From NCBI RefSeq assembly GCF_001431405.1, contig NZ_LDJL01000001.1, positions 1 to 64,000 on the forward strand: a stretch of DNA of 64,000 nucleotides, in the 5' to 3' direction. The translations under genes and the position numbers were made by a program. Of this stretch, positions 4,410 through 53,763 are shown one piece after another. The first letter of the stretch is position 1, and every line of letters starts with the position of its first letter. Source of the stretch: Pseudoxanthomonas dokdonensis. Its GTDB lineage: Bacteria > Pseudomonadota > Gammaproteobacteria > Xanthomonadales > Xanthomonadaceae. The notes under the pieces are model-generated. The model worked only from the letters and a program-made list of their open reading frames with translations, was not told the origin of the DNA and did not search any database.

Positions 4410-4640
4410 TCAGGCGAAACTTTTGCCGGCCGGTAGTTGCTTGAGCACGAGGATGGCCTCGGACAATACGTCCACCTCTTCGTCCTGGAAGCCGCCGCGG
4501 ACTTCGTTCTCGCAGACGAACAAGCCCTGCTCCAGCAGGTGCAGCAGGGTTTCCTGCGCGCTCCAGCCACGCGCCTTGGCGATGCGCTGGATGCGCTGCT
4601 CGAGCACTGCGTCGATGTCACGCAACACGATTTCGTTCAT
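4410..4640 (-). CDS. Small FitA/Arc-like ribbon-helix-helix protein
   Basis: The 76-residue protein begins MNEIVLRDIDAVLEQRIQRIA. This short strand followed by two predicted helices (RIQRIAKARG, AQETLLHLLEQGL) resembles FitA/Arc-family DNA-binding antitoxins. The C-terminal part is acidic (FQDEEVDVLSEAI). No toxin gene (for example a PIN-domain gene) is adjacent: the left neighbour is anmK, the right is ampG, both on the opposite strand. It could be a solitary regulator rather than half of a toxin-antitoxin pair. The start was set at the ATG whose product begins directly with the strand; an in-frame start 10 codons upstream exists. The function is not established. Confidence 0.6.
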   Translation of the reverse strand: MNEIVLRDIDAVLEQRIQRIAKARGWSAQETLLHLLEQGLFVCENEVRGGFQDEEVDVLSEAILVLKQLPAGKSFA

Positions 4641-4732
4641 CTGTCCCCCTGCACCGGGCGATGTTGGCACGGCGTGCCAGGCCCGTCGACACCGGCCACG
4701 TTGGCGGCGGGTGTTCGGGTAGCATACCTTGC

Positions 4733-6055: not shown

Positions 6056-6079
6056 GCGTCCGCCGCCCTGGGGTCGGAT

Positions 6080-6874: not shown

Positions 6875-7013
6875 ATCGCGTCCTCGATTGACAGGCCTGC
6901 AAGGATAACCCGCGCCAATCGCAGCATAGGCGACCGGCCTGGACGGCGGTGGCCACCCGGCAGGCGCCGGTTTGCGCTAGGATTTGCCCATATCCAGCCT
7001 TCGACGGACCGCC

Positions 7014-7700: not shown

Positions 7701-7723
7701 TGGCAGCAGGGGGCTGCACAACA

Positions 7724-8392: not shown

Positions 8393-8497
8393 TCCGGAAG
8401 CCGGCAGCGCAGCCAAACGCGGCCTTGCGGCCAAAATTACTGCCACCGACAAGCCGGGTCGCAGCGCGCTGCGCTCCGGCAAGACCGCTCGGCTGGC

Positions 8498-10825
8498 CTA
8501 GAAGGTAGCGACCAGATCCGGGGCTACGGTTTTCAGATGGGCACGGAAGTCGTCCTGGATGCGTTCCAGCGCCTGCTGGCTGTCAGCCTCGAAACGCAGC
8601 ACCAGGATTGGTGTGGTGTTGCTGGCGCGCAGCAGGCCCCAGCCGTCATCCCAGTCCGCCCGCAGGCCGTCGATGGTGGAGATGCGGGCGCCTTCGAACT
8701 GCGCGCTTTCGACAAACCGTTCGACCACCGCATGCGGGGTGCCCTCGTTGACCGGCACCTTGATTTCCGGGGTGGAGATGCCGTTCGGCAGCGCCTCGAG
8801 CACCTGGCTCGGCGTCTCACTGCGGGCAGCCAGGATTTCCAGCAGCCGGGCGGCCGAATACAGACCGTCGTCAAATCCGTACCAGCGCTCCTGGAAGAAG
8901 AAGTGGCCGCTCATCTCGCCGGCCAGTTCGGCGCCGGTCTCGCGCATCTTGCTCTTGATCAGCGAGTGGCCGGTTTTCCACATCATCGGGGTGCCACCGT
9001 GGCGCAGGATCCAGCCCTGCAGCTTGCCGGTGCACTTGACGTCGAAGATCACCAGTGCGCCGGGGTTGCGCTCCAGCACGTCGGCGGCGAACAGCATCAG
9101 CAGCCGGTCCGGGAAGATGATTTCGCCGTCGCGGGTCACCACGCCCAGCCGATCGCCATCGCCGTCGAAGGCCAGGCCGAGATCGGCGTCGAAACGCTTG
9201 ACGGTCTGGATCAGGTCCTCCAGGTTGTGTGGCTCGCTTGGATCCGGATGATGATTGGGGAAGGTGCCGTCGACCTCGCAGTACAGCGGGATCACTTCGG
9301 CCCCGATCGCTTCCAGCAGTTGCGGGGCCAGGTCGCCGGCCACGCCGTTGCCGGCATCGACGACCACTTTCAGCGGTCGCTCCAGTTGTACGTCATCGGC
9401 GATGCGCTGCACGTAGTCGGCGCCGATGTCACGGTGTTGCAGGCTGCCGGGTTCGCGGGCCTGGTGCAGCTCGCGCTGCTCGATGCGCCGGTACAGATCG
9501 GTGATGGCATCGCCGGACAGGGTTTCGCCGCCGATCACGATCTTGAAGCCGTTGTAATCAGGTGGATTGTGGCTGCCGGTAACGGCCACGCTGCTGCCGG
9601 TACGCAGGTGGTAGGCAGCGAAATAGGCCACCGGGGTGGGCGCCATGCCGATGTCGATGACGTTGCGGCCAGCCTTGCGCAGGCCCTGGATCAGCCCGCC
9701 GACCAGGTCCGGGCCGGACAGGCGGCCATCGCGGCCAACCACGATGTCGGTCAGATCCTGCTGCTGCATGACGGTGCCGATGGCCTGGCCAATCAATTCA
9801 GCCACGTCCACGTCCAGCGTGGTGCCGACAATGCCGCGGATGTCATAGGCGCGGAAAATACCTGGATCAACGTTCACTTGTTTCCTTTCCGAGGGGGCTT
9901 CGGTGTTGCCGGGGGATTTCTTTTCCGTCGCCACCACGGGCAGCGGTTCGCGTTGCAGCGATTCACTCAGGGTCGGTGATTCCTCATCGGCCGGGTCGGC
10001 CGTACCGCGACGCAGTGCCGGCAAGCGCAGCCCGCCACGCGCGATCAGCAGCGACACTATCGCCAGCAGGGCGAATACCACCGCCGCCACCAGGCTGGCG
10101 ACGGCGCCCAGACCCATGACCGCAGCGGTGCTTTCAGGCAGCGCGGCAGCCACCCGCAGACCGGTGTCGCCAACCGCGTGGGCCAGTACCTCGGCGCCGT
10201 CGGACAAGGCCGTGTTGCCACGTTCACGCACGTTGAAGTTGCCCTGGCGCAGGGCCAGGTAGGCGCGGCTGGGCACCACCACTGAATCGAAACCGCCGGT
10301 CAACTGTTCCAGCGGCAGGCTGGCATAGACCACGCCCAGCGCCGAGGATGCGGCCACGCCGAAGCGGGTCTGCTTGCCATCCTTGACCACACGCGCGACC
10401 GGTTCGCTCTGCTTGAGGCCTGCTTCCAGCAGCGCCAGCTTGCTGTAGCCGAATGCGCCGGGATCGGCGTAGGCGGCGTCAAGCGTCGCCGGGTACACCT
10501 GCACGTTATCGACGCCGGCCCAACCGTGCTGGACACGTTTGCTGACCGCGTCGGCATCGCCACTGGCCATCGCCGACTGGACGCTTTCGCTGGCCAGCCG
10601 CTGCTTCATCTGTATGGTCTGGCCGCTGAATGCCGTTTGCACCAGCCGGGTCGCGTTGTCGCGCGCACTCTCGATGCCGTTGGCCAGCTGCGTGTCGCGC
10701 CACTGCATGGCGCCGGTATAGCCCAGCCAAAGCGCCAGCAATGCAAACAACACCGCCAACAGCGGCAGCGTGCGCCCCATGCCACCCGGCATCTGCAGAA
10801 AAACCGATTGAACCTTGTTGGTCAT
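8498..10825 (-). CDS. algC: Phosphomannomutase/phosphoglucomutase with an N-terminal membrane sensor-like domain
   Basis: This enzyme interconverts hexose 6- and 1-phosphates, feeding GDP-mannose and UDP-glucose for LPS and exopolysaccharide. The 775-residue protein is much longer than the roughly 460-residue enzyme. It has TM1 (about 20-40), a roughly 195-residue presumed periplasmic region, TM2 (about 236-263) and a charged linker, then the mutase from about 319. The active-site serine loop (VTGSHNP), metal loop (DGDGDR), sugar loop (GEMSGHFF) and phosphate loop (RASNTTP) are all intact. The start is an ATG just after GGGGGCG; a GTG one codon earlier is possible. It lies 11 bp after dut in a coaBC-dut-algC operon, the same order as in pseudomonads. 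Confidence 0.9.
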   Translation of the reverse strand: MTNKVQSVFLQMPGGMGRTLPLLAVLFALLALWLGYTGAMQWRDTQLANGIESARDNATRLVQTAFSGQTIQMKQRLASESVQSAMASGDADAVSKRVQHGWAGVDNVQVYPATLDAAYADPGAFGYSKLALLEAGLKQSEPVARVVKDGKQTRFGVAASSALGVVYASLPLEQLTGGFDSVVVPSRAYLALRQGNFNVRERGNTALSDGAEVLAHAVGDTGLRVAAALPESTAAVMGLGAVASLVAAVVFALLAIVSLLIARGGLRLPALRRGTADPADEESPTLSESLQREPLPVVATEKKSPGNTEAPSERKQVNVDPGIFRAYDIRGIVGTTLDVDVAELIGQAIGTVMQQQDLTDIVVGRDGRLSGPDLVGGLIQGLRKAGRNVIDIGMAPTPVAYFAAYHLRTGSSVAVTGSHNPPDYNGFKIVIGGETLSGDAITDLYRRIEQRELHQAREPGSLQHRDIGADYVQRIADDVQLERPLKVVVDAGNGVAGDLAPQLLEAIGAEVIPLYCEVDGTFPNHHPDPSEPHNLEDLIQTVKRFDADLGLAFDGDGDRLGVVTRDGEIIFPDRLLMLFAADVLERNPGALVIFDVKCTGKLQGWILRHGGTPMMWKTGHSLIKSKMRETGAELAGEMSGHFFFQERWYGFDDGLYSAARLLEILAARSETPSQVLEALPNGISTPEIKVPVNEGTPHAVVERFVESAQFEGARISTIDGLRADWDDGWGLLRASNTTPILVLRFEADSQQALERIQDDFRAHLKTVAPDLVATF

Positions 10826-40656: not shown

Positions 40657-40698
40657 CACCCCTTCTGAGAACCCACTCTCCCAGCCATCGCCCGCAGC
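40657..40698 (+). promoter_or_regulatory. C-rich, G-poor leader segment, possible rut-like site of rho
   Basis: A hand count gives 22 C and 6 G in these 42 nt, unusual in this GC-balanced sequence. C-over-G bubbles mark Rho utilisation sites, and rho of E. coli is known to autoregulate by termination in its own leader. The same mechanism here is an inference. Confidence 0.4.
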
Positions 40699-40734
40699 TT
40701 TGCAGGCGCTCGCCCCTTAGCGAGGAATCGCAAC

Positions 40735-42501
40735 TTGTCCGACAGTACCAACGAAACCGGCGCCCCAGCCGAGAAGCGCGTGCGCAAGCCACGTGCCACC
40801 AAGGCCACCAGCAAGACCGCTGCCAAGACCACTACCGCCACTGACGCCGCCAGCGATGCGCCGGCCGCGCCGAAGTCCGGCGCCAGCGACAACCACGACA
40901 CCCCTGCCACGACCAGCGCGCCCAAGCCGGCGCCGGCGGCAGCCGAGTCCGCGCCCGCGAGCAGCGCCGCGCCAGCCCAGAATGCGACGGCCGAATCCGG
41001 CTCCGGTTCCGGCCAGGGCGACAACGGCGGCGACCAGGGCGGCAGGCAGCAGGATGGCGACGGCCAGGGCCAGCGCTTCAACGGCAACAACAACAACCGC
41101 CGCGACCGGTTCCGCAATCGCCGCGACCGCAACCGCGACCGCCAGGGTGGCGGTGGTGGCCAGAACGACGGCCTGCCCAGCGACAACAATGACAACCAGC
41201 CGCCGCGCACTCCGCCCAGCGTGCCGGAAGGCTTTCCGCAGTACTCGCTCAGCGATCTGAAGAAGATGCCGGCGCACAAGCTGCTGGAAATCTCCGAGCA
41301 GCTCAACATCCACGAAGGCGTCGCCCGTGCCCGCAAGCAGGACGTGATCTTTGCGGTGCTGAAGGTGCTGACCCGCCATGGCGAAGGCGTCGCCGCCGAC
41401 GGCGTGCTGGAAATCCTGCCAGACGGTTTCGGTTTCCTGCGCGCGCTGGAAGCCAGCTACCTGGCCGGCCCGGACGATGTCTACATCAGCCCCAGCCAGA
41501 TCCGCCGCTTCAACCTGCGCACCGGCGATCACCTGTCCGGCCGCATCCGCTGGCCGAAGGACGGCGAGCGCTATTTCGCCCTGTCGATGGTCGACACCAT
41601 CAATGGCGAACCGCTGGAAGCCAGCAAGAACAAGGTGCTGTTCGAGAACCTGACCCCGTTGTTCCCGCGTCGTCGTTTCACCCTGGAACGCGGCAACGGC
41701 TCCAGCGAAGACATCGCCGGCCGCATCCTCGACCTGATGGCGCCGCAGGGCAAGGGCCAGCGCGCCTTGATCGTCAGCCCGCCGAAGGCCGGCAAGACCA
41801 TCATGATGCAGCAGATTGCCACTGCCATCACCACCAACCACCCGGACGTACACTTGATCGTGCTGCTGGTCGACGAGCGTCCGGAAGAAGTGACCGAAAT
41901 GCAGCGCACGGTGCGCGGCGAAGTGGTCAGCTCGACCTTCGACGAACCGGCCGCGCGCCACGTGCAGGTCGCGGAAATGGTGATCGAGCGGGCCAAGCGC
42001 CTGGTCGAGCACAAGAAGGACGTGGTGATCATGCTCGACTCGATCACCCGCCTGGCCCGCGCCTATAACAACGTGGTGCCGAGCTCGGGCAAGGTCCTGA
42101 CCGGTGGTGTCGATGCCAATGCACTGCATCGCCCGAAGCGCTTTTTCGGCGCCGCTCGCAACGTCGAGGAAGGTGGCAGCCTGACCATCATCGCCACCGC
42201 GCTGGTCGAAACCGGCAGCAAGATGGATGAAGTGATCTACGAAGAGTTCAAGGGCACCGGCAACAGCGAAGTGCATTTGAACCGTCGCATCACCGAAAAG
42301 CGCGTCTACCCGGCCATCGACATCAACCGCTCCGGCACCCGCCGCGAGGACTTGTTGATCGAACCGGAACTGCTGCAGAAGATCTGGATCCTGCGCAAGC
42401 TGCTGCACCCGATGGACGAAATCGCGGCGATGGAGTTCCTGTTGGACAAGATGAAGAACACCAAGTCCAACGACGAATTCTTCAGCTCGATGAAACGCTG
42501 A
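40735..42501 (+). CDS. rho: Transcription termination factor Rho with a long disordered N-terminal extension
   Basis: Rho is a hexameric RNA-dependent ATPase that ends transcripts lacking intrinsic terminators. The 588-residue protein has the canonical N-terminal domain from about residue 170 ([17 protein letters not shown]), RNA-binding GFGFLR, the P-loop SPPKAGKT and the Q/R-loop region [12 protein letters not shown]. Residues 1-169 are a low-complexity extension: Ala/Pro/Thr-rich first, then Gly/Gln/Asn, then an Arg/Asn/Asp patch (about 113-136). E. coli Rho (419 residues) lacks it. The start is TTG, after GCGAGGA. Confidence 0.95.
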
Positions 42502-42523
42502 GGTCAGTCGCCAGCAAACAGAA

Positions 42524-42547
42524 AGCCCCGCGATTGCGGGGCTTTTT
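42524..42547 (+). terminator. Rho-independent terminator after rho
   Basis: AGCCCCGC (42524-42531) pairs with GCGGGGCT (42536-42543) over a GATT loop and is followed by T residues. The convergent regulator gene ends 46 bp away. Confidence 0.9.
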
Positions 42548-42592
42548 CATGCTGGCGCACTACGACGTCAACGCCGCTGCATCAACCCGCCG

Positions 42593-44611
42593 TCACCGGC
42601 ACTGGAAATCGTCGACGCCGACCGGCGCGCAGCCATCGCCCCAGCGACCGCTCTGGCGCCAGTAATCCACCACCCCGGCCTGGCGCAGCAAGCGCTTGAA
42701 ATCCGGATGCGCCCGCAACCCGGAATACGGCGCGTTCCAGAACGCGACGTAGGGATATTGCGCCATGCCGCCGCTTTCGAACCCGTCCTGGGCCTGCAGG
42801 TAGCGGCGTAAACCGACAACCGCCAACTCTGTGTCACCCAGTGCGTCGGCAACGTTGAACGCTACGTAGACCGAATAAGCGTCAGCATCGGCAATCGGTT
42901 GTTCCAGCTCATGACGCACGCGTGCCAGCATGGCCTCGGGCCGGTCCAGCAGGTTGCCCAGTTCGCGGAAAAAGGGGGTGTCCAATGCCTGGTTCTGCTT
43001 GATCAGGCGCCGATGCAGTTGCCTCAATTCGGCCACGCCACCAGGCCGTTGTGACGCCAACTGGCGGAAGAAGGCAAGATAGTCCGGCTCGGCCTGGCTG
43101 CCTTCAAGTTGCCGCCCACGTTGATACTCCGCTTCGGCATCCTGATAGCGGCGGGCGGCGGTGTAGTCATATTGCAGGTCGCGTGACAGGAACAGCGCCA
43201 TCGGCTCGACCGCGCGCGCCTGTTCGACCAGGCTGATGGTGTCCTGCAGATGGCCGACCGCATAAATCATGTAGGCGTAGTCCCAGATGCGCTCCTTGCT
43301 CGGCGGCCCGCCATCGACCACCTGCTTGGCCAGGGTGATGGCTTCGGCGCGCTTGCCGGCACGCCACAAGGCGTTGGCGCGATCACGTTTGGCGATCCAG
43401 CTGTCCGGGGACAGCGTCGCGATATCGGCGCGCACCTGCAAGGCTTCGCTACGCAAGCTCGCCGCCTGTGGATCACCCAGTTCATTGGCCAGCGCGTTGA
43501 GCGAGACCGCCAGCGCGTCACGGCACAGCACGCAATGCGGATCCAATGCCACCATCTCGCGGGCCAGCTGCAGTCTTTCGCGGTCGTGCTGGAAATCGAA
43601 CAGTTCGCGCATGCCGATGCCGCGCCAGCGCAGGAAGCGCTCGTACGCTTCGACGTTGGTGCTGCCGCCTTGCTGGCGATTGAAGCGGGCCACGTCCAGC
43701 TTGACGCTCAGTGCCTGCGCAACCTGGCGGGAGATCTCTTCCTGGACCGCGAATACATCGCGCAGCTCGCGGGCATAGATCTGCGACCACAGCTGGCTGC
43801 CATCGTCAGCACGGACGAGCTGCGCAGCGACCCGCAGGTGCCCGCCATCGCGGCGTACGCTGCCTTTGAGCAGGTAAGCGACCCCCAGTTTCCGGCCGAT
43901 GCCGGGCACATCCTCATGCCGGTCGCGGAAGGAAAAGCTGGAGGCACGCCCGACCACCCGCAGGCCCGGCGCCTGCGCCAGCTGGTTGAGGATCTCCTCG
44001 GCCAGTCCGTCGGCCAGATAGCCCTGGTCGCGGCGGCGCGAAAGGTCCGCGAACGGCAGCACTGCCAGCGAAGGCACGGCTGCCGGGACGTTCGACGAGT
44101 GCGAAGCAATGCTGTCTGCGCCAGGCTGGCGGGTAAAGAGGCCGGCCACTGCCAGCAGCAGAATGGCTGCCAGCGCAGCCAGCCAGCGCCAGCGTGGTCC
44201 TGTATCCGGCAAAGCCGTCACCGCTCGCGGGTCGCTGTACTCAGCCGCGCCGGTATCCGCTGCGATGTCCGGATCCGGGGCAGTCACTTCGGTCGCGGGC
44301 AAATCGAAGCGATAACCGACCCCATAGATTGTCCGCAGCAGGCGCGGGTGCGTTGCGTCTTCGCCCAGCGCCTGCCGGAGCAGGCTCATGATCCGGTTCA
44401 AGACGCTCTGGGTGACATGCCGATGGCCCCAGATCCGGTCCAGGATCTGCTCGCGGGTGAACACCTGCCCGGGCGAGCCGGCCAGCAACGCCAGCACCGC
44501 GAACGCCTTCGGCTCCAACGCCTGCACCGCACCATCACGCAGCAAGCGCTGGCCAGCAAAGTCGATGACCACATCGTCGAAGGCGAGTCTGGACGCAGCA
44601 GGTGGCGACAC
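42593..44611 (-). CDS. CadC-like membrane regulator with winged helix and TPR-type periplasmic part
   Basis: The 672-residue protein has an OmpR/PhoB-type winged helix at about 8-105 (ALEPKAFAVLALLAGSPG, then LLRTIYGVGYRF) and a single transmembrane helix at about 142-163. The likely periplasmic region starts with a TolB/FlgO-like module (SLAVLPFADLS, about 180) and continues as TPR-like helices. This is the CadC/ToxR plan: DNA binding in the cytoplasm, sensing outside, no phosphorelay. Translation starts at GTG 44611 behind GGAGGAGAG. The target is unknown; the divergent DUF2306 gene is an obvious candidate. Confidence 0.82.
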   Translation of the reverse strand: MSPPAASRLAFDDVVIDFAGQRLLRDGAVQALEPKAFAVLALLAGSPGQVFTREQILDRIWGHRHVTQSVLNRIMSLLRQALGEDATHPRLLRTIYGVGYRFDLPATEVTAPDPDIAADTGAAEYSDPRAVTALPDTGPRWRWLAALAAILLLAVAGLFTRQPGADSIASHSSNVPAAVPSLAVLPFADLSRRRDQGYLADGLAEEILNQLAQAPGLRVVGRASSFSFRDRHEDVPGIGRKLGVAYLLKGSVRRDGGHLRVAAQLVRADDGSQLWSQIYARELRDVFAVQEEISRQVAQALSVKLDVARFNRQQGGSTNVEAYERFLRWRGIGMRELFDFQHDRERLQLAREMVALDPHCVLCRDALAVSLNALANELGDPQAASLRSEALQVRADIATLSPDSWIAKRDRANALWRAGKRAEAITLAKQVVDGGPPSKERIWDYAYMIYAVGHLQDTISLVEQARAVEPMALFLSRDLQYDYTAARRYQDAEAEYQRGRQLEGSQAEPDYLAFFRQLASQRPGGVAELRQLHRRLIKQNQALDTPFFRELGNLLDRPEAMLARVRHELEQPIADADAYSVYVAFNVADALGDTELAVVGLRRYLQAQDGFESGGMAQYPYVAFWNAPYSGLRAHPDFKRLLRQAGVVDYWRQSGRWGDGCAPVGVDDFQCR

Positions 44612-44806
44612 CTCTCCTCCGGCGCAACGGGGCCGGCAAAAGTATAGGCACAAAGCGCGCCGCGACGCCGCGCTTCGCCGGACGCGACTGCTGTTGGATG
44701 TCACTGCCCGGCCATGGGCATCCCTGCGACTTTCCTGCGACTGGCCTGAGGACTTGCCACTGCGGCGGTGCCAGGCTGCCGGTCGCCAGCCCTACGGAGC
44801 AGTGCC

Positions 44807-45673
44807 ATGTCCAAGCAGCAAAAAGCGCGCCTGCCAGCAGCGACCGGGGCGCCGGTATTCGAAGATGTGGTTATTCATTGGCTGGGGCGTTTCCTGCGTC
44901 TGGCGACCTGGCTTGGACTGGCTGGCTTCGGCCTGTACATCGCCTTGCGCGCCACTGGCCGGACGCCTGCCAATTTCAGTCAATGGCGTGCACTGATCGA
45001 GCGGCTGCCGATGCATACCGCATCGGAGTGGATCGCCAACATCGGCATCGGCGTCCATTTCCTGGCGGGCATGATCCTGGTACTGGCCTGGCCGATCCTG
45101 TTCTCAGCCCGCATCCGCGCCGAGCATCGGCTCGTCCACCGCTGGACCGGTCGCGTCTATGTCAGCGCGGCGCTGCTGGCCGGCGGTGGCGGCCTGTCGT
45201 TCATCCTTGGCCATGGCGCCTATGTCCCGGCCGCATCGGTTGCCTTCGGCATCTGGGGCGCGCTGATGATGTCGAGTGCGGTGATGGCATTCGTGCACGC
45301 GCGCGCTAGACGTTTCAGCCAGCACCGGGCCTGGGCCATCCGCCTGTTCGCGCTGGTGCTGGGCTCGTGGCTGTTCGATCTGGAGTTCAGGGCCTGGAAG
45401 GATCTTGCCGGCGGGGTCGGGATTGGCAGCGGCGACACGATGGGGCCGTTCGACCATGCCATCCTGTATCTGTTCTTCGTCCCCAATCTGCTGGTCGCCG
45501 AATGCTGCATCCGCAACCTGCACCGGCCCAGCCGTTGGCCAGCGGCCTTCAGATGGCCGGCCCGGCTGCTGCTTGCCGCCGCCGCGCTCGTATTCGCCTA
45601 CGCAATCATCGTGGTCAGTGCCACCCAGGGCGGCAAATACGGCAAACATCTGCTGTCGTTGTTTGCCGGCTGA
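44807..45673 (+). CDS. DUF2306 multi-pass membrane protein
   Basis: The 288-residue inner-membrane protein has about eight hydrophobic segments. The DUF2306 core (about 90-225) contains HRWTGRVYVSAALLAGG and the conserved HRAWAIR. The function of the family is unknown. ACGGAGC precedes the ATG. It is divergent from the CadC-like regulator. Its last 36 codons lie in a sequence that occurs again 1.45 kb downstream, fused to another gene fragment. Confidence 0.78.
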   Translation: MSKQQKARLPAATGAPVFEDVVIHWLGRFLRLATWLGLAGFGLYIALRATGRTPANFSQWRALIERLPMHTASEWIANIGIGVHFLAGMILVLAWPILFSARIRAEHRLVHRWTGRVYVSAALLAGGGGLSFILGHGAYVPAASVAFGIWGALMMSSAVMAFVHARARRFSQHRAWAIRLFALVLGSWLFDLEFRAWKDLAGGVGIGSGDTMGPFDHAILYLFFVPNLLVAECCIRNLHRPSRWPAAFRWPARLLLAAAALVFAYAIIVVSATQGGKYGKHLLSLFAG

Positions 45674-45877
45674 TCCAGTGCCGCCTGCCGGCACTGGACG
45701 GCGCTGCATGCACCGCCCGATGAGTCACCCGGCGACGTGTGTCTGGCACGGGACACGATGCAGTTAAAAAAAGCCCCGCGATTGCGGGGCCTTTTTGCAT
45801 TATGCGTGAGCGGTCATCGCCTCAGCCGTTGTCGACCGCCGCCCTCCGCAACTTGAGCGTCCCCGTCCGTCTTGATC
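45567..45877. repeat. Direct repeat, left copy (DUF2306 3' end, terminator, gene tail)
   Basis: These about 310 bp match 47022-47331 with about 20 differences by hand count (roughly 93% identity). They comprise the last 36 codons of the DUF2306 gene, a palindrome (45675-45697), a rho-independent terminator, and about 50 bp that match the 3' end of the right-hand TonB-C-like gene. Here that last part is a non-coding remnant beyond the stop of the left-hand gene. Confidence 0.88.
45765..45796. terminator. Bidirectional terminator (left copy)
   Basis: GCCCCGC (45773-45779) pairs with GCGGGGC (45784-45790), with seven A residues before and CTTTTT after. It serves the DUF2306 gene on the plus strand and the TonB-C-like gene on the minus strand. 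Confidence 0.88.
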
Positions 45878-45892
45878 ATGACGCGACATAAA

Positions 45893-46774
45893 CTACTGGT
45901 CACCAGGCTGCAATTCACTCAGCAGGCGCAGGCCGCCTTGATCTTGCATGTAAATACCATTTGATGCCAACGCATCCGGTGAAAAGCCCTCATGACGATG
46001 CTGCTCTGGCCATGGATTTTCGGCGCGCGGACCCGGAACATAGGAAACCCAGCCGTCCGCATCTTCATCATCCCCCCACATTGCGAATTCAATAGGGACT
46101 CTGGCCACACGATAATCCATCTCGGAATCGTCCATGTCGGCAGGCATGAGAAACCGCCATTTCCTCGCGGCAGCGATTGCATTGCGGGCAAAGAGCTCGC
46201 GCCATTGCTGCATCTGCTTCTCACTGTTCGCCAATGCCCTCAAGTTGACCTGCTCCGCAATCACATCCTGGACCTGACCGTCTTTGCCAATCTTGAGGAG
46301 CAGATAAGTAGTGGCTCTTGCTCCTGCCATTGCCATTTGCCCTGGATAGACTGGGGGCTTGAGCTTTCCATCCGCACGAATATCTTCCTTTTCTTCAAGA
46401 ACTGGCGGAAAACTGGCGCCAGCGATACGGACTTCATAGTTGTTCTTATCGTCAGCTTTCGCAACGACACGCAAGGACATCTGGTTGCGCAGGACTGTGT
46501 TGGGCCCGACGATTGCATTAGGCAACGCCGTAACATCGAACTTCCAGGCTCTGATACTCTTATCGAGAAAGCCCTGGACGCTTTGCGGAACTTTATCCAA
46601 GGAGTTCAAGTGATAGCTTTTCACCTCTCCCAACAAGTCCACATCAATAGTGCCTGTAAGCAGAATACTGGCTTCAATCTGCTTGATCAGATCAGACTTG
46701 CCTGCAGCGGAGGCATCAGCGGATCCACACAGAACCCACATCATCAAGAGCAAACCAGTCCATGCCTTGATCAT
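45893..46774 (-). CDS. Secreted TonB-C-like protein, left (diverged) copy
   Basis: The 293-residue product has a signal peptide (GLLLMMWVLCGSADASA, cleavage near ASA-AGK) and a C-terminal half resembling the TonB C-terminal fold (PPVYPGQMAMAGA, then DGQVQDVIAEQVNL and AARKWRF). There is no proline-rich linker or retained anchor, so it is not a normal TonB. It is a paralogue of the gene at 47276-48106 (shared FLDKSIRAWKF/FLDENIRQWKF, DVIAEQVNL, YVPGPR, GFSPDAL), but coding identity is low. GC in one 120-bp sample is about 52%, below its surroundings. The start is ATG 46774, or 46783 three codons earlier. Its stop lies beside a remnant of the other copy's 3' end. Confidence 0.75.
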   Translation of the reverse strand: MIKAWTGLLLMMWVLCGSADASAAGKSDLIKQIEASILLTGTIDVDLLGEVKSYHLNSLDKVPQSVQGFLDKSIRAWKFDVTALPNAIVGPNTVLRNQMSLRVVAKADDKNNYEVRIAGASFPPVLEEKEDIRADGKLKPPVYPGQMAMAGARATTYLLLKIGKDGQVQDVIAEQVNLRALANSEKQMQQWRELFARNAIAAARKWRFLMPADMDDSEMDYRVARVPIEFAMWGDDEDADGWVSYVPGPRAENPWPEQHRHEGFSPDALASNGIYMQDQGGLRLLSELQPGDQ

Positions 46775-46888
46775 CACATTCATCCATAAGTTCGTCCGAG
46801 GACCAGCGTTATAGCAGCAACATGACCGGCAGTCCTCACACTTTTGCCTTGCCATTGCAGTACATGGAGGCTCCCCCGCTTCGACCAT

Positions 46889-47128
46889 GGCGACCAGCGG
46901 GTCACGCTGCATAGCGGCAGCCTAGAATTCACATTGTTATTCCTGGTCGCAGCGGTGAGCGAGGTGCCGGCTTTCGAGCGTTTTGTCTTGCGTGTGTACC
47001 GGTGTTGCCAGTGGTCATTGATGCTGCTTGCCGCCACCGCGCTCGTATTCGCCTACGCAATCATCGTGGTCAGTGCCACCCAGGGCGACAAGTACGGCAG
47101 ACATCTGCTGTCGTTGTTTGCCGGCTGA
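46889..47128 (+). pseudogene. Junction relic: Kef-antiporter start fused in frame to DUF2306 end
   Basis: 46889-46985 matches the start of the antiporter gene at 48258-48350 (HSGSLEFTLLFLVAAV against HSGGLEITLIFLLAAV), but the ATG is replaced by CTG. After about 36 unmatched bases, 47022-47128 repeats the last codons of the DUF2306 gene (LVFAYAIIVVSATQGDKYG). Both parts keep their native reading frame in one open frame that can be extended back to an ATG at 46844 (94 residues, two hydrophobic segments). It is most simply a recombination scar; expression as a small two-helix membrane protein is possible but unsupported by a good start site. Confidence 0.78.
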
Positions 47129-47331
47129 TCCAGTGCCGCCTGCCGGCACTGGACGGCGCTGCGTGCACCGCGCGCTGAGTCACCCGGCGACGTGTGTCTG
47201 GCACGAAACCCAATGCCGTAAAAAAAGCCCCGCGATTGCGGGGCCTTTTTGCATTATGCGTGAGCGGTCATCGCCTCAGCCGTTGTCGATCGCCGCGCTC
47301 TGCAACTTGAGTGTACCCGGTCCGTCCTGGT
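47022..47331. repeat. Direct repeat, right copy
   Basis: This is the partner of 45567-45877, offset 1,455 bp (1,454 after a one-base difference in the A-run). It includes the DUF2306 3' fragment, the same 9-bp-stem palindrome (47130-47152), the same terminator and the genuine 3' end of the right TonB-C-like gene. Confidence 0.88.
47219..47250. terminator. Bidirectional terminator (right copy)
   Basis: GCCCCGC (47227-47233) pairs with GCGGGGC (47238-47244), flanked by seven A residues and five T residues. It is identical in its core to the one at 45765-45796. Confidence 0.88.
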
Positions 47332-48106
47332 AGACCAGTCCGTCAACCAGCGCATCAGGCGAGAAGCCGGGTGAGAGACCTTCGATCGACCATTCGGTAC
47401 TTTCGCGTGGTCCAGGCACGTAACCGATCCACTGGCCGTATGCCCGCGAGAGGCCCATCGAGTAACTGACCGGCACGCGCAGGACTTGGTAGCTGCCAGC
47501 CTGCTTGTCTTCGTCGGCGGTGATTTTCCAGCGGCGGGCGGCGTCGATGCTGGCGTCGGCAAACATCTTCCGCCACTTGCGCATCTGCTCATCACTACCC
47601 TTCACCTGCAGGTTGACCTGCTCGGCGATGACATCGAGCACCCGTCCGTCGCCATCGACCTTCATGACCAGATAGACGTCCGCCGAAACACCGGCACGTG
47701 CTGCCTCGACTGGATAACTCGGCGCAGTCATTCTGGTCCGTTTACGCTGCTTTTGCTTGACCGGATAGAAGTTGAATCCGGTCAGTGCTATCTGCACCGC
47801 ACCATTGGCGGCCGGCTTGGCCACCAGTCGCAGGCTCATGTCGTTGACGACGATGGCATTGGCCGGCACTCCGGGGACAGGCTGGAACTTCCACTGGCGG
47901 ATGTTCTCATCCAGAAAGCCCTTGACGCCGGGTGAAATCTTGTCGGCCTTGTCCAGTTGATAGTCAACCAGACTGCCGTCGGGGTTGACGGTAATCGAAC
48001 CCGAAACCACCATCGCGGCTTCGGTGTCCACGGCCGGTGCCTGCGCCTGCACGACGCCCGCCCATGCAAACAACAACACGCATGCAAACCGAATAATCCT
48101 GCGCAT
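47276..48106 (-). CDS. Secreted TonB-C-like protein, right copy
   Basis: The 276-residue product has a strong ribosome-binding site (GGGAGGATCG) and a signal peptide ending near VQAQAP. Its TonB-C-like domain (PSYPVEAARAGVSADVYLVMKVDGDGRV, AARRWKI) lies at about residues 150-225. Without an N-terminal anchor or Pro-rich region it is unlikely to couple to ExbB/ExbD in the standard way, and its role is unknown. Its 3' end, not the left copy's, matches the tail left beside the intact DUF2306 gene, so this is probably the ancestral gene of the locus. It is divergent from the antiporter. Confidence 0.78.
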   Translation of the reverse strand: MRRIIRFACVLLFAWAGVVQAQAPAVDTEAAMVVSGSITVNPDGSLVDYQLDKADKISPGVKGFLDENIRQWKFQPVPGVPANAIVVNDMSLRLVAKPAANGAVQIALTGFNFYPVKQKQRKRTRMTAPSYPVEAARAGVSADVYLVMKVDGDGRVLDVIAEQVNLQVKGSDEQMRKWRKMFADASIDAARRWKITADEDKQAGSYQVLRVPVSYSMGLSRAYGQWIGYVPGPRESTEWSIEGLSPGFSPDALVDGLVYQDGPGTLKLQSAAIDNG

Positions 48107-48275
48107 CGATCCTCCCTGTAGGGTCACGCCGCTGGTCGCGGCCTGTCCCATCCTACCCCGCTGAATGAGAGTGAATCCACTTTGGGCCGGGCCCCCTCTT
48201 TCCTGTCGTGGTGCCAATATCGCCGTGGTCTGCCGTCATCGCCGGCTTCGGCCATAATGGCCAGCGAGGTGAATC

Positions 48276-50102
48276 ATGCATAGCGGCGGTCTAGAAATCA
48301 CATTGATATTCCTGCTGGCAGCGGTGGTCGCGGTGCCGGTGTTCAAGCGCTTTGGCCTGGGCGCGGTGCTGGCGTATCTGGTGGTCGGGGTGATGCTGGG
48401 TCCCTACGGTGCGCGCCTGGTCACCGATGCCGACCGGGTCCTGGGCGCGGCCGAAATCGGCGTGGTGATGATGCTGTTCGTCATCGGCCTGGAGTTGTCG
48501 CCGTCGCGGTTGCGGGTGATGCGCAAGCCGGTGTTCGGCGCCGGTGGCCTGCAGGTGTTGTTGAGCGGGCTGGCACTGGCCGCGCTGACCCTGCTGGCGG
48601 GGATGTCGTGGAAGGCGGCGCTGGTGATCGGACTGGGACTGGCCTTGTCTTCGACCGCGGTCGGTCTGCAGCTGCTGTCAGAACGCAAATCGCTGACCGC
48701 GCCGCATGGGCGGCTGGCATTCGCCATCCTGTTGTTCCAGGACGTGGCGGCGATTCCCTTGCTGGCTGCCATCCCCCTGCTCGCTGGCGCCACCGAGGGT
48801 GGCCCGCCGCTATGGGAGCTGGTGCTCAAAGCGGTGATCGCGATCGCCGCGCTGACCATCGGTGGCCGGCTGCTGCTGCGCCAGGTATTCCGTATTGTCG
48901 CCCGTTCGCAGATGCCGGAGGTGTTCACCGGTGCGGCCTTGCTGACGGTGCTGGGGTCGGCGTGGATCATGCAGGTGGCGGGATTGTCGGCCGGTCTTGG
49001 CGCGTTCCTGGCCGGGGTGCTGCTGGCCGACTCGGAATACCGGCACGAACTGGAATCGCAGATCGAGCCATTCAAGGGGCTGTTGCTGGGCCTGTTCTTC
49101 ATGGCCGTGGGCATGAGCATCGATCTGCAGCGGGTGTTGTCCGAGCCGATGACCATCGCCGGTCTGGTGGCGATGCTGATGATCGTCAAGTTCGCGATCC
49201 TGTACCTGGTCGGCCGCCGTCCGGGCGGTCTGGACATCCGCGAATCATTGCGGCTGGGCGCGGTGCTGGCGCTGGGCGGCGAATTCGCCTTCGTGGTGTT
49301 TTCCGAAGCCAGTCGGGTCGGCGTGATCGACATGGTGGCGCGCGACCGGCTGGTGGCCGCGGTCGGTCTGTCGATGGCGCTGACCCCACTGCTGGTGATC
49401 GTCATTGCCCGCTGGGCCAGTGCGGGACCGAAGAGCCGCGAGACGCGCGAATATGACCCCTTGCCCGAGGATGGTCAGCCGAAAGTGCTGATTGCCGGCT
49501 TTGGCCGCTTCGGCCAGGTGGTCGCGCGCCTGCTGGCCAGCCAGAAGCTGCCGTTCATCGTCATCGAGCATGACATCGAGCAGCTGGATTTCTCGCGCCG
49601 GTTCGGCAACACCATCTACTACGGCGATCCGGCAAAACCGGACCTGCTGCGCTCGGCGGGCGCGGCGTATGTCGAGGTCTTCGTGATCGCGATCGACGAC
49701 CCGGCCGAGTCACTGCGGGTCAGCGAGGTCATCCGTCATCTGTATCCGCAGGCAACCACCTTTGTACAGGCGCGTGACCGCCGGGTGGCGTGGGAGCTGA
49801 TGGATCTGGGCGCCAAGCCGATCCGCGAAGTGTTCTATTCCAGCCTGCGCACGGGCGAGAAAGTGCTGCGGGCGCTTGGCGTCAACGAAGAAGCCGCGCA
49901 TCGGATGGCCAAGCAGTTTGCCAGCCACGACGAGCGCCTGCTGATCGCGCAGCATGCCGTGCGCGATGACGAGGACGCCCTGCGGCAAAGCGCGGTCAGT
50001 GCGCGTCAGGAACTGGAAGAATTGCTCAATGCCGATGCCGGCGAAGGCCAGTTGGCGACGATTGCCTCGTCACGCCAGCCCGGCGAGGAATCGGCCAGTT
50101 GA
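48276..50102 (+). CDS. Kef-type (CPA2) cation:proton antiporter with a TrkA-N domain
   Basis: The 608-residue protein has an N-terminal antiporter domain of about 12 helices (residues 1-385) and a RCK/TrkA-N domain with a Rossmann nucleotide motif (VLIAGFGRFGQVVARLL, about 408-424). A charged helical tail follows. KefB/KefC proteins export K+ in exchange for H+, gated by glutathione adducts in E. coli; no KefF/KefG partner is nearby, so gating here is unknown. GAGG precedes the ATG. A copy of its first codons forms part of the junction relic at 46889. Confidence 0.88.
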   Translation: MHSGGLEITLIFLLAAVVAVPVFKRFGLGAVLAYLVVGVMLGPYGARLVTDADRVLGAAEIGVVMMLFVIGLELSPSRLRVMRKPVFGAGGLQVLLSGLALAALTLLAGMSWKAALVIGLGLALSSTAVGLQLLSERKSLTAPHGRLAFAILLFQDVAAIPLLAAIPLLAGATEGGPPLWELVLKAVIAIAALTIGGRLLLRQVFRIVARSQMPEVFTGAALLTVLGSAWIMQVAGLSAGLGAFLAGVLLADSEYRHELESQIEPFKGLLLGLFFMAVGMSIDLQRVLSEPMTIAGLVAMLMIVKFAILYLVGRRPGGLDIRESLRLGAVLALGGEFAFVVFSEASRVGVIDMVARDRLVAAVGLSMALTPLLVIVIARWASAGPKSRETREYDPLPEDGQPKVLIAGFGRFGQVVARLLASQKLPFIVIEHDIEQLDFSRRFGNTIYYGDPAKPDLLRSAGAAYVEVFVIAIDDPAESLRVSEVIRHLYPQATTFVQARDRRVAWELMDLGAKPIREVFYSSLRTGEKVLRALGVNEEAAHRMAKQFASHDERLLIAQHAVRDDEDALRQSAVSARQELEELLNADAGEGQLATIASSRQPGEESAS

Positions 50103-50204: not shown

Positions 50205-53200
50205 TCAGGGCTGATCGCGCAGGAAGCGTGCCATCGATGCGCCGGCACCGGGTGTCATCGGCATGAACTCGGCAGCCACGTCGACGAAGCCGCGCATGAT
50301 CGCGATTTCGCGCGGGGTGCGGTTCAGCGCATCACGCAGGTCGGGATCAGCGCCTGCACGCAACAGCCGCTGCACCACCTTCACCAGGCCATGCAATGCG
50401 GCCAGATGCAGCGGGCCGAAGCCACGCGGATCCTGGCTTTCCAGCGACACGTCTTCGTCCAGCAGGTGCTCCAGGCCGGCCAGCACCACTTCTTCGTTGC
50501 AGGCCGTGCCCGGTTCGGCACGCGCACCCAGCAGCAGCAACAGCGGTGTCACCGAACCGGGCATGGCCAGACTTGAGCCCGCCGGGTCCGGCGCCGCGCC
50601 GGACAGCAGCAAGGTATCGAACAGCGCCAGCAGGCGCGCACGATCGCGTGCGGTGAAGCCATACAGCGCCGCGCAATGCAGCGGGCTCAATCCTTGTGCA
50701 TCACCGGCGTGGACATCGGCACCGGCGGTGAGCAGGCGCGAGGCGATATCCGGCAGGCCAAGGGCGGCGGCCAGCATCAGCACGGTGACCCCGCCGGGCA
50801 ACCGATGCTCGATGTCGGCACCGGCCTGCAACAGGGCATCGACGATGTCGGCCTGGCGCATGCTGACTGCCGCCGACAACGGCGTGGCGCCGGTGCCGGC
50901 GGCGTGTTGCGGATTGGCGCCGCGTTCGATCAACAGATCGACCACTTGCCGATGGCCGCCACCGGCCGCGCGTAACAGGGCGGTGCAGCCCTGCGCGTCG
51001 GGTGCGTCCACCGCAAAGCCCAGATCCAGCAGCCGGCGAACCGCATCGGCATCGCCCTGCATCGCCGCGGCCGGCAGATCCGCCTCGCGCAGCGCGCGCC
51101 TGGGCAGCGGCCAGCCACGCCAATCCAGCCAATCGGCCAGATCCCGCCGGCCACTGGCCAGCGCCACCCCGAGCGGGGTCTGCCCGTCAGCAGCGCGCGC
51201 GGTCGGGCTGGCGCCCTTGGCGATCAGTTGTTTCAGTGCCGGTTCGCGTTCCAGCGCGGCGGCCAGATGCAGGGCGGTCATGCCGTGGCTGTCGCGGGCT
51301 TCGCGATCGACGCCGATGTCCAGCAACCGGTCCAGCAACCGTGACCAGCCCAGCCGTACCGCCAGCGACAGGTTTGGATCGCCGTGCACGCCAGCGGCGG
51401 CGAACGGATCGGCACCGCGCTCGAGCAGTTCCAGTGCGAACTGCTCGAGCCCGCGATGGCCGACGTCGGCCTGGGCACAGGCACTGAGGAATCGCGCCAG
51501 GCCACCGGCGCCGGCCGGCGATACCGCATGGCGCAGGTAAACCTGTACCGCCGGCACCGCTTCGGCGCCACGCGACAGCAATGCGAACAAGGGCGTGTCG
51601 CCGACCGCATCGGTGGTTTCGGCTGCTGCCCCATGCCGCAGCAGCCACTCGACATGGCCGGGTACCAGCGCCAGGTCCGGTGCGTGCAGCAGATTGCCCA
51701 GGTCACGTGCGCTGCACAGGGCCAGCACCGACGCCAGCGAGGCATCGGCATTGCCGGCCTTGAGCGCTTCGCGCACCACCGCGATCGGCGCCCGGTCAGG
51801 CAATACCTGTTCGTCCTGCGCGGTCACCGCGCTGGGCAGCGGATAGGTCGGGTCCAGGGCGCTGACAATGCTCCAGCGGCCGGCGGCGGCGGCAATATCC
51901 ACCGCGCGCTTGCCGTGGCTGTCGGCCTGGTCGGCATCGACGCCCCATTCCAGCAGTCGCCGCAACAGCGCCGGCGAGACCAGCTCGCCGCTGCAGGCCA
52001 GCCATGCAGCGTTGCGCTGTTCGGCATCGACCGCGGCGACGTCGGCATTCGCCTCGGCCAGTTTTTCCAGCACCGCGATGCGCCCGGCACGGGCCGCTTC
52101 CAGCCATGGCGTGCGACCTTCGGCATCGGCCACGTTGACCTCTGCACCGGCCGCCAGCAGGGCATCGACCACTTCGACGTTGCCGGCCTGCGCGGCCTGA
52201 TGCAGCGCAGTGCGCTGGCGAGTATCGCGGGTGGCGACCCTGGCCTTGTGCTTGAGCAGCAGCAACACGCCTGCCGGGTCGTCCTCGTCGGTGGCCGCCG
52301 CAGCCAGCAATGCCGGCTGGCCGGCAGCGGGTTCGGGCTTGGCGCCGCGCTCCAGCAGGAACCTGGCCAAGCGCCAGTTGCCGGCGATGCAGGCAATCGC
52401 CAACGGCGACTGGCCCTCATGATTGAGTGCGTCGATGTCGGCGGCGGCATCGCGCAGCAGCGCCGCTACACCGGGATCGGAGCTGCGTGCGGCATGGTGC
52501 AGCGGGGTGTTGCCTTCGTTGTCGGCGACCCGCGGGTCGGCGCCGTTGGCCAGCAGCGTGGTCACCGCATCCGGGCGGCCATGCCAGCTGTCGCGGGTAG
52601 CGGCCAGCAAAGGTGTCAGCCCGGCATGGCTGTGGTTGAGGTCGACACCATGCGCAATCAGCGCACGCAGCAGGCGCAGATCCGGCAATACCGCCGCCAA
52701 CACCCCCAGGCTGCGCTGATCACGCGAGCCCGGCGCCGGCAATGCATGGGCATCAGCGCCGGCATCGAGCAGTTCCAGCGCGCGTTCGACACGGCCGCCG
52801 CGGGCGGCCTCGAACAGGGCGTGGTCGAGATTGGGATGTTCTTCAACCGGCGCAGCCGTATCCGCGCTGGCGACTGGAGCCGGCATCTGCACCACCGGCA
52901 GGCCACGCGCGGCTACCACCCGCTGCAGGCCCCAGTGCAATGCCGGCGACAGCAGTACACCGGCCACCGCCAGTGTCCAGCGGTTGCTTTCGGCCAGCAG
53001 CCCCGGCCATGCCAGCAGCAGACCGATGCCGAGCTGGGTTGCGACCAGCGCCGCCACCCCCAGGCCTCGCCACGCATGGAAGTCACGTTCGGCCAGCAGC
53101 CGCCAGCGCGATGCCAGGGCCCCGCCTTCGCGTTCCAGTTCCTGCCACAAAGGCCAGGTCCGCCACAGTCCAATCAGCAGCAGGCCGATCACCGCGCTCA

Positions 53201-53513
53201 GTGCCATCGTCGCCGGCAGGCTGCCGCTGTCGCGCACCGCAGCCAGCGGCCACGCCAGCAGGGCGCCGGCAATGGCAAAGGCAGCAGTCCAGGCCAGCAG
53301 CAGACCGGGAATGTCCTGTTGCAGGCGCAACCGCGACGGTGCGCGGCGGGTGTCACGCTGCCACGACACCGCCAGCGCCCAGGCCGGCTGCGCTAGGCAC
53401 ACCATCACCGCGGCGACGATGCCGCCGAAACCGGCCAGCAGCCACAGCACGCTCGCCGTGGCCAATGCAATCGCGCTTGCCTTGCGCAGGGAAACGACGC
53501 GGTTGTCAGGCAT
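50205..53513 (-). CDS. Large membrane-anchored ankyrin-repeat protein
   Basis: The 1,102-residue protein starts with about five hydrophobic helices (residues about 12-215). The rest, to near the C-terminus, is ankyrin repeats, many with the standard G-x-TPLHxAA and LLxxGAD pattern (for example NEGNTPLHHAARSSDPGVAALL, HGMTALHLAAALEREPALKQLI). I estimate some 20 repeats, several degenerate. It is probably an inner-membrane scaffold whose repeats lie in the cytoplasm, but the partner is unknown. The ATG at 53513 overlaps the ycgL stop region by 8 nt, so it is expressed behind ycgL. Confidence 0.83.
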   Translation of the reverse strand: MPDNRVVSLRKASAIALATASVLWLLAGFGGIVAAVMVCLAQPAWALAVSWQRDTRRAPSRLRLQQDIPGLLLAWTAAFAIAGALLAWPLAAVRDSGSLPATMALSAVIGLLLIGLWRTWPLWQELEREGGALASRWRLLAERDFHAWRGLGVAALVATQLGIGLLLAWPGLLAESNRWTLAVAGVLLSPALHWGLQRVVAARGLPVVQMPAPVASADTAAPVEEHPNLDHALFEAARGGRVERALELLDAGADAHALPAPGSRDQRSLGVLAAVLPDLRLLRALIAHGVDLNHSHAGLTPLLAATRDSWHGRPDAVTTLLANGADPRVADNEGNTPLHHAARSSDPGVAALLRDAAADIDALNHEGQSPLAIACIAGNWRLARFLLERGAKPEPAAGQPALLAAAATDEDDPAGVLLLLKHKARVATRDTRQRTALHQAAQAGNVEVVDALLAAGAEVNVADAEGRTPWLEAARAGRIAVLEKLAEANADVAAVDAEQRNAAWLACSGELVSPALLRRLLEWGVDADQADSHGKRAVDIAAAAGRWSIVSALDPTYPLPSAVTAQDEQVLPDRAPIAVVREALKAGNADASLASVLALCSARDLGNLLHAPDLALVPGHVEWLLRHGAAAETTDAVGDTPLFALLSRGAEAVPAVQVYLRHAVSPAGAGGLARFLSACAQADVGHRGLEQFALELLERGADPFAAAGVHGDPNLSLAVRLGWSRLLDRLLDIGVDREARDSHGMTALHLAAALEREPALKQLIAKGASPTARAADGQTPLGVALASGRRDLADWLDWRGWPLPRRALREADLPAAAMQGDADAVRRLLDLGFAVDAPDAQGCTALLRAAGGGHRQVVDLLIERGANPQHAAGTGATPLSAAVSMRQADIVDALLQAGADIEHRLPGGVTVLMLAAALGLPDIASRLLTAGADVHAGDAQGLSPLHCAALYGFTARDRARLLALFDTLLLSGAAPDPAGSSLAMPGSVTPLLLLLGARAEPGTACNEEVVLAGLEHLLDEDVSLESQDPRGFGPLHLAALHGLVKVVQRLLRAGADPDLRDALNRTPREIAIMRGFVDVAAEFMPMTPGAGASMARFLRDQP

Positions 53514-53763
53514 CGGCGAGATCGCTGCCTTCGTGCACCGGTGGAAATTGCAGGTGATAGCCCTGCTGCGCCAGATTGTCGCGGACCACCGCTGCATCGA
53601 CCCGGGCCAGCTTGCGCTCCGGGGTCAGGGCCACGTCCAGCACGAATTCGAGCCGGCCCAGCGAATCTCGCAGCGCGTCGGGCAGTGATTCGAAATCATC
53701 ACGGCAGGCCAGGTAAACATAGGTGTCGGCTTTTCGCTGGCTCTTGTAGACGTAGGCTTGCAT
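53506..53763 (-). CDS. ycgL: YcgL-domain protein
   Basis: The 85-residue protein matches the YcgL family in its opening (MQAYVYKSQRKADTYVYLA), the LGRLEFVLDVAL middle and the GYHLQFPP end. The family is a small alpha/beta fold of unknown role; in E. coli ycgL lies near cell-division inhibitor minCDE. It overlaps the ankyrin gene by 8 nt (53506-53513), implying co-translation. The 190 bp upstream, up to the peptidase gene, show no further gene. Confidence 0.88.
   Translation of the reverse strand: MQAYVYKSQRKADTYVYLACRDDFESLPDALRDSLGRLEFVLDVALTPERKLARVDAAVVRDNLAQQGYHLQFPPVHEGSDLADA

What the first reader, a model, noticed from the sequence alone, without database searches (positions are those of the whole stretch)
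45567..48350. Tandem duplication of a DUF2306 / TonB-C-like / Kef-antiporter locus
45567-45877 recurs at 47022-47331 (about 93% by hand count) and the start of the antiporter gene (48258-48350) recurs at 46889-46985. The order is therefore DUF2306 end, gene, antiporter start, then the same again: a tandem unit of about 1.4 kb. This is a clear structural event in otherwise core chromosome, and it preserves full-length DUF2306 and antiporter genes at the outer ends.
Basis: seen in the sequence. Interest (0 to 1): 0.8.

Follow-up and report, generated by a model that had tools for sequence, protein, structure and literature searches.

The report
Two old gene versions, rearranged flanks
Beside a potassium-exporter gene this bacterium carries two very different versions of one fast-changing gene, probably for a protein between the cell's two membranes, with copied scraps of neighbouring genes around them; the scraps record several recombination steps rather than one fresh doubling.

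Summary
The repeats are real: 45567-45874 recurs at 47022-47329 (289/307 identical), and the start of the Kef gene recurs as a decayed stub at 46889-46990. But one 1.4-kb tandem duplication does not explain them. The genes between (A', 45893-46783; A, 47276-48106) are 37-41% identical with saturated synonymous sites, while the DUF2306 flank differs by 3.7%. The left repeat also holds the end of A, behind the complete gene A'. At least two events of different age are needed. The genus matches Pseudoxanthomonas. In 36 congeners the rho-kef interval holds 0-5 copies of this TonB_C-like gene family (X). In 37 of 44 (non-independent) species pairs with kef at least 90% identical, the kef-proximal X is below 80%. 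Pieces of the kef start or its 5' flank sit behind a displaced X in 8 of 36 genomes. Three congeners have the order X-reg-DUF2306-X-kef; copying reg-DUF2306-terminator-A-end to the left of A' and losing the inner copy would give this locus. That history is inferred. The pattern resembles displacement arrays of secretion-system immunity genes; the function of X is untested. A well-preserved instance of a known kind of event.

The parts
40669..42498 (+). rho, transcription termination factor (open frame; start not fixed); conserved left border of the variable interval
   Evidence: TIGR00767 E=1.7e-205; best stretches mostly 87-97% identical in the loci
42522..42542 (+). rho terminator hairpin AAAGCCCCGCGATTGCGGGGC, one of exactly three copies in the genome as held
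42593..44704 (-). reg: regulator with an OmpR/CadC-type DNA-binding domain, found beside DUF2306 in the relatives examined
   Evidence: Trans_reg_C E=1.9e-18; NCBIfam matches below the curated cut-offs; neighbours
44807..45673 (+). DUF2306 membrane protein, intact; its C-terminus keeps the residues invariant in the 17-row alignment
   Evidence: PF10067 E=5.5e-14; alignment
45567..45874 (.). left copy of the 308-bp repeat (DUF2306 3' end, spacer, terminator, A-end stub)
45822..45875 (-). stub of about the last 17 codons and the stop of gene A, behind the stop of intact A'; 7 mismatches and 1 gap
45893..46783 (-). gene A' (X family): signal-peptide-like start (by eye) plus TonB_C-like sequence, 296 aa from this start, intact; GC 52%, lowest of 86 X genes
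46889..46990 (+). decayed stub of the kef start (start codon lost; 10 of 28 codons changed non-synonymously)
46991..47021 (.). 31-bp filler of unknown origin between the two stubs
   Evidence: no significant match to kef
47022..47329 (.). right copy of the repeat: DUF2306 3' stub (47022-47128), spacer, terminator, then the functional end of gene A
47276..48106 (-). gene A (X family): signal-peptide-like start (by eye), a clear TonB_C match in the C-terminal half and only weak TonB-like hits in the N-terminal half, 276 aa
   Evidence: TonB_C E=2.4e-7; profile A2 vs TonB structures E=1.4e-9; weak N-terminal hits
48276..50102 (+). Kef-type antiporter (CPA2), intact; conserved right border of the variable interval
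   Evidence: PF00999 E=6e-54, TrkA_N E=1e-20; match at E<=1e-100 in 37 of 38 genus genomes

Best explanation
The locus is a duplication-and-loss remnant inside a hypervariable cassette interval between rho and kef. (1) Inferred: an older cassette addition put one X gene (A) next to kef and pushed a previous kef neighbour (A') away; A' kept a piece of the kef start, which has decayed since. (2) Inferred, by analogy with three congeners: the order was then rho - A' - kef stub - reg - DUF2306 - terminator - A - kef. (3) Inferred: an unequal, at least one-sidedly illegitimate exchange, between sister chromosomes or with DNA of another strain, placed a copy of reg-DUF2306-terminator-end-of-A to the left of A', creating the joint 'A-end stub | A' 3' flank' near 45875. 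(4) Inferred: the redundant inner reg-DUF2306 was deleted, leaving only the DUF2306 3' stub, joined to the kef stub through 31 bp of filler (46991-47021). Shown: the stubs, their unequal divergence, the great divergence of A and A', the congeners' gene orders, and the recurrence in the genus of divergent X between similar flanks and of kef-start pieces behind displaced X. X genes in close congener pairs are under purifying selection and A and A' are both intact, so both are probably expressed periplasmic proteins; their job is not shown.
For: Unequal divergence: kef stub 16/84 vs DUF2306 stub 4/107, p=0.0007 (uncorrected; smallest but one of 15 comparisons); A-end stub 7/54 vs DUF2306 stub, p=0.04 (would not survive correction); terminator to A stop 0/52. 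By codon, 10/28 vs 3/34 non-synonymous, p=0.013. A vs A': 37% aa, dN 0.71, dS saturated. 48 matches in other genomes score higher with A' than A does, best 41-45% identity. The DUF2306 C-terminus is intact while the right stub breaks an invariant glycine, so the copied block came from a functional DUF2306. Order rho-X-reg-DUF2306-X-kef in G171, G164, G161. Kef-start pieces 3-44 bp from the 5' end of a displaced X in 8 of 36 genomes; control segments from inside kef 0/36 and 0/36. Swaps: in three sister pairs kef is 0.91-0.97 identical but the X beside it 0.53-0.75; 37 of 44 pairs with kef >=0.90 have proximal X <0.80 (pairs share genomes).
Against: In the three congeners used as the model order, the piece behind the outer X reaches only 8-20 bp into kef coding (the rest is kef's 5' flank, which is also the X promoter region); only 5 of the 8 cases hold 48-155 bp of coding. 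Confidence was lowered from 0.55 to 0.5 for this. No scar of a former A' or kef stub was found left of reg: 42499-42595 vs the stub region p=0.86, reverse 0.62; 42546-42592 vs the A end p=0.35 and vs the A' end p=0.24. Counts per stub are small and the age ranking assumes equal neutral rates. Kef stub and A-end stub do not differ (p=0.48). A and A' are sisters in the best tree, bootstrap 10 and SH-aLRT 91, i.e. neither shown nor rejected. The more common order with DUF2306 is rho-reg-DUF2306-X-kef (7 of 36, plus one with two X), against 3 of 36 for the assumed ancestral order. No second strain of this species was available. A' could have come from a donor (GC 52%).
Confidence: 0.5

Rival explanations
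1. Two-haplotype fusion: a strain with DUF2306-A-kef recombined unequally with a strain carrying the alternative allele DUF2306-A'-kef, so that two alleles of one polymorphic locus now sit in tandem; the kef-stub/DUF2306-stub joint is that crossover.
For: Flank versus X divergence inside this genome looks like that between sister species. Explains in one step why the flanks are alike and the X genes are not.
Against: The kef stub and DUF2306 stub would be equally old, but differ 16/84 vs 4/107, p=0.0007, with mostly non-synonymous change in the kef stub. Needs a separate event for the A-end stub behind A'.
Confidence: 0.22
2. Insertion of a ready-made cassette (A' plus its old kef stub) into DUF2306-A-kef with duplication of 308 bp of target, by one-sided homologous, one-sided illegitimate integration.
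For: Seven of 36 congeners have exactly rho-reg-DUF2306-X-kef. A' has the lowest GC of 86 X genes, 52% vs a mean of 66% for the 84 others. Parallel case: in G161 a rho 3' end repeat (88.5% over 218 bp, starts 2.6 kb apart) lies in front of X.
Against: Over the aligned kef start the stub is nearer to this genome's own kef (95/145) than to any of 47 others (best 86/145), so a donor would have to be a sister lineage. No match to A'-kef stub in the plasmid collection.
Confidence: 0.18
3. Simple tandem duplication of the 1.4-kb unit, with the genes diverging afterwards or the flanks homogenised by gene conversion.
For: Gross order fits; A and A' are weakly sister in the tree.
Against: dS between A and A' is saturated while the DUF2306 flank differs by 3.7%. 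The left repeat holds the end of A behind an intact A'. Conversion from an old stub would have put decay into the functional DUF2306 end, which is intact.
Confidence: 0.05
4. Assembly artefact (chimeric join or mis-resolved repeat).
For: Draft genome of 34 contigs.
Against: The copies are 6% different and lie within a 325.7-kb contig with unique sequence between them; kef-start pieces behind displaced X occur in seven other genomes too.
Confidence: 0.02

Closest known systems
Displacement arrays of T6SS immunity genes in Vibrio cholerae (PMC5361080; abstract, part of the introduction and passages seen)
   Same: Fixed locus with variable cassettes; that paper proposes homologous replacement plus addition by homology-facilitated illegitimate recombination, with displaced genes pushed along the array, and notes that copies in one genome do not cluster together in trees.
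   Different: No effector or secretion gene was found beside X among the window genes scanned; the border gene is a Kef antiporter; X is not known to be an immunity protein.
Homology-facilitated illegitimate recombination (PMC3240628; abstract seen)
   Same: One homologous and one illegitimate joint could give stubs such as the kef start and the A end.
   Different: Inferred from scars only; competence of this organism was not examined.
Tandem duplication / random loss of gene order in animal mitochondria (search listing with starts of abstracts seen)
   Same: Gene order changed by copying a segment and losing redundant parts, leaving remnants.
   Different: Bacterial chromosome; exchange with another strain is as possible as a sister-chromatid duplication.
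TonB C-terminal domain family (PF03544)
   Same: A scores above the Pfam cut-off; a profile of 12 X proteins matches solved TonB domains (best E=1.4e-9).
   Different: No membrane anchor or proline-rich linker seen by eye; A' is just under the Pfam cut-off (22.8 vs 24.6 bits).

Membership tests
Simple tandem duplication | All parts of the two units have the same age and order | tested here: not met
   Divergence ranges from 0/52 to 16/84 and saturated dS; A-end stub out of place
Displacement (cassette addition) array | Copies in one genome are not each other's closest relatives | tested here: inconclusive
   48 matches in other genomes score higher with A' than A does, but the best tree joins A and A' with 10/91 support
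Displacement (cassette addition) array | Remnants of the displaced neighbour lie beside old cassettes | tested here: met
   Kef-start piece behind A' and behind displaced X in 7 other genomes of 36; controls 0/36 and 0/36; 3 hits away from any X; in 3 of the 8 the piece is nearly all 5' flank
Displacement (cassette addition) array | Alleles at the fixed locus differ between close relatives while the flanks are conserved | tested here: met
   three pairs; 37 of 44 pairs, not independent
T6SS/toxin immunity array | A cognate effector or toxin gene lies at the locus | tested here: not met
   None among the seven window proteins from rho to the ankyrin gene; the ankyrin protein matches Dot/Icm Ank models only far below their cut-offs, as shared ankyrin repeats would. 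Other genomes' loci were not scanned for this
TonB energy transducer | N-terminal membrane anchor, proline-rich linker and TonB_C domain, with ExbBD (definition recalled) | tested here: not met
   By reading the sequences: no proline-rich linker; no ExbB/ExbD among the window neighbours scanned. No signal-peptide or membrane predictor was run
TonB_C domain (PF03544) | Score above the curated cut-off | tested here: inconclusive
   A 31.5 bits (met), A' 22.8 bits (not met), cut-off 24.6

The most novel reading that the evidence does not exclude
The rho-kef interval of Pseudoxanthomonas and its relatives is a polymorphic self/non-self or defence locus: X proteins are periplasmic TonB-domain decoys that protect against TonB-dependent intruders (bacteriocins, phages) or periplasm-acting effectors, alleles are swapped between strains, and old alleles are kept in the array for breadth of protection.
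Probability: 0.08. Interest if true: 0.75.

Novelty: new member of a known kind. Interest (0 to 1): 0.4.

Why it matters
The scars let one read a partial order of recombination events at a locus where versions of an uncharacterised, probably periplasmic gene family differ sharply between species whose neighbouring kef genes are over 90% identical. That hints at selection for diversity in a gene with no assigned function, and gives a clean system for studying how cassettes are added, rather than replaced, in bacterial chromosomes.

Tried and rejected
Simple tandem duplication plus divergence, and duplication plus gene conversion, were rejected. A microhomology joint at 47020-47026, noted early, was dropped because the kef similarity beyond 46990 is not significant. 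A kef-stub or A' scar left of reg was sought and not found. The first genome-contig scan with A returned no relative. A plasmid source for A'-kef stub: no match in PLSDB. PADLOC: no match for five window proteins. Literature: no paper held all the terms (TonB C-terminal domain, periplasmic, tandem, Xanthomonas; Pseudoxanthomonas, TonB, tandem, paralogs) or (five immunity-array terms); these are narrow searches, not proof of absence.

Rows dropped: of 94 X matches, those under 225 aa or of 400 aa and more were left out of the tree (86 rows) and. G165 gave no kef match at E<=1e-100; G168's contig was too short for the stub count (36 genomes, this one included). One search used 31 genomes with a proximal X of 35 with 900 bp of kef. 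One search's weaker hits of the kef start (E up to 0.01, many not beside an X) were not counted; one search used E<=1e-5 and still gave three hits away from any X (G117, G178, G153). An earlier count said 11 of 28 stub codons; the recount is 10.
Full report
Observation. 45567-45874 matches 47022-47329 at 289 of 307 aligned bases, and the start of the Kef antiporter (48258-48359) recurs at 46889-46990, 82% over 83 nt in register and 78% over 116 bp. Reading the sequence adds something: the 308-bp repeat holds the end of DUF2306, a spacer, a terminator, and about the last 17 codons and the stop of gene A. In the left copy this A-end lies behind the stop of another, complete gene, A' (45893-46783). 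So a 'unit' is not simply repeated.

The genes between the repeats. A and A' belong to one family, here called X: a signal-peptide-like start (by eye) followed by TonB_C-like sequence. A passes the Pfam cut-off and A' falls just short; a profile of 12 members matches solved TonB domains, best E=1.4e-9, through its C-terminal half, while the N-terminal half gives only weak hits. A and A' are 41% identical locally and 37% globally, with dN 0.71 and saturated dS. In a search of 395 genomes of the family, 48 matches in other genomes scored higher with A' than A did. In a tree of 86 X proteins A and A' are joined, but only with bootstrap 10 and SH-aLRT 91. A' has the lowest GC of the 86 (52%; mean of the 84 others 66%).

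Ages of the scars. Per part, the two copies differ by 0/52 (terminator to A stop), 4/107 (DUF2306 end), 8/95 (spacer), 7/54 (A-end) and 16/84 (kef start). The kef stub differs from the DUF2306 stub at p=0.0007 and the A-end stub from the DUF2306 stub at p=0.04; kef stub and A-end stub do not differ (p=0.48); these are 15 uncorrected comparisons. The kef stub has lost its start codon and changed 10 of 28 codons non-synonymously, yet over the aligned start it is nearer to this genome's own kef (95/145) than to any of 47 others (best 86/145). It looks like a home-grown pseudogene piece. The DUF2306 C-terminus encoded by the left copy keeps the residues invariant among 17 sequences, while the right stub breaks one, so the copied block was functional when copied. 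One tandem duplication does not account for these facts.

Setting. The interval is bordered by rho and kef. In 36 congeners its content was: rho-X-kef 10; rho-reg-DUF2306-X-kef 7, and one more with two X whose rho lay outside the stretch; rho-X-reg-DUF2306-X-kef 3; rho and kef without X between 4; the rest arrays of two to five X, some with rho outside the stretch fetched, and one contig too short. In 8 of 36 genomes (this one included) a piece of the kef start or its 5' flank sits 3-44 bp from the 5' end of an X that is not next to kef; two control segments from inside kef gave 0/36 each, and three further kef-start hits lay away from any X. In G171, G161 and G164 the piece reaches only 8-20 bp into the kef coding sequence; in the other five it holds 48-155 bp. 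In three sister pairs kef is 0.91-0.97 identical and the last part of DUF2306 0.88-0.99, while the X between them falls to 0.53-0.75; in two of the pairs parts of reg (and in one the start of DUF2306) are also replaced. Of 44 congener pairs with kef at least 0.90 identical, 37 have a proximal X below 0.80 and 7 do not; the pairs share genomes and are not independent. X is nonetheless constrained: dN/dS in the close pairs is about 0.15-0.37 by division, against 0.03-0.12 for kef. So X versions are exchanged or differentially lost at a fixed place, and additions can leave kef stubs.

Terminator. The 21-mer AAAGCCCCGCGATTGCGGGGC occurs exactly three times in the genome as held: after rho and in the two repeats. 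Of 11 hairpins with this stem only these three share the loop. In six congeners with rho-reg-DUF2306-X-kef my hairpin scan found only the rho terminator in the interval; G063 had additional ones of other sequence. This suggests, without proving it, that the DUF2306-A spacer carries a copy of the rho terminator from a time when A lay next to rho.

Mechanism. The order rho - A' - kef stub - reg - DUF2306 - terminator - A - kef, modelled on G171, G164 and G161, gives the present locus if a copy of reg-DUF2306-terminator-A-end was placed left of A' and the inner reg-DUF2306 was later deleted. This explains why the kef stub is old, why the A-end stub lies behind A', why the DUF2306 stub has changed least, and why both outer genes are intact. 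No scar left of reg was found; that support is missing. Because the pieces in the three model congeners are nearly all 5' flank, I lowered confidence in this history from 0.55 to 0.5. Rivals are a fusion of two haplotypes, or insertion of a ready-made A' cassette; all three share the conclusion that A' and A are old alternative versions. [quoted passage not shown] the recombination type itself PMC3240628, abstract). The comparison is of pattern only: no effector gene was found among the window genes scanned.

Function. X proteins are probably soluble periplasmic proteins with one clear and perhaps a second TonB-C-like domain.

Verdict. The repeat is real and informative, the single-duplication reading is not right, and the locus is a new example of a known style of recombination-driven array. 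Interest 0.4.

Noticed in passing
L119 (G160) about 2969-8806 in kef-oriented coordinates; L108 (G155) 4788-8801: Between X and kef two congeners carry very large open frames (1946 and 1338 aa) that look glycine-rich and secreted by eye, in G160 with about twelve tandem repeats of roughly 261 bp.
   Followed up: no
L138 (G161) 25-238 vs 2589-2806 (kef-oriented); L161 (G083) 379-511 vs 2058-2190: In two other genomes the 3' end of rho is repeated (88.5% over 218 bp; 97.7% over 133 bp) on both sides of 2.4 and 1.5 kb of DNA: a second flank-duplication scar at the same interval.
   Followed up: partly
L139 (G163) 4283-7956 (kef-oriented): One congener holds four X genes of different clades in a row, several of them the versions found singly in other species.
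   Followed up: partly
L142 (G208): A genome of another family of the order has a DUF2306 as similar to the window's (69-70%) as the closest congener's, with the same regulator beside it: the reg-DUF2306 pair may move between families.
   Followed up: no
window 50205-53597: A 1130-aa ankyrin-repeat protein follows kef, convergent with it, here and in the loci of several other genera of the family.
   Followed up: no
L146 (G078) 4761-5642, L151 (G087) 5167-5985 (kef-oriented): Some X copies in arrays of other genera are broken by stop codons, so arrays also lose members by decay.
   Followed up: no
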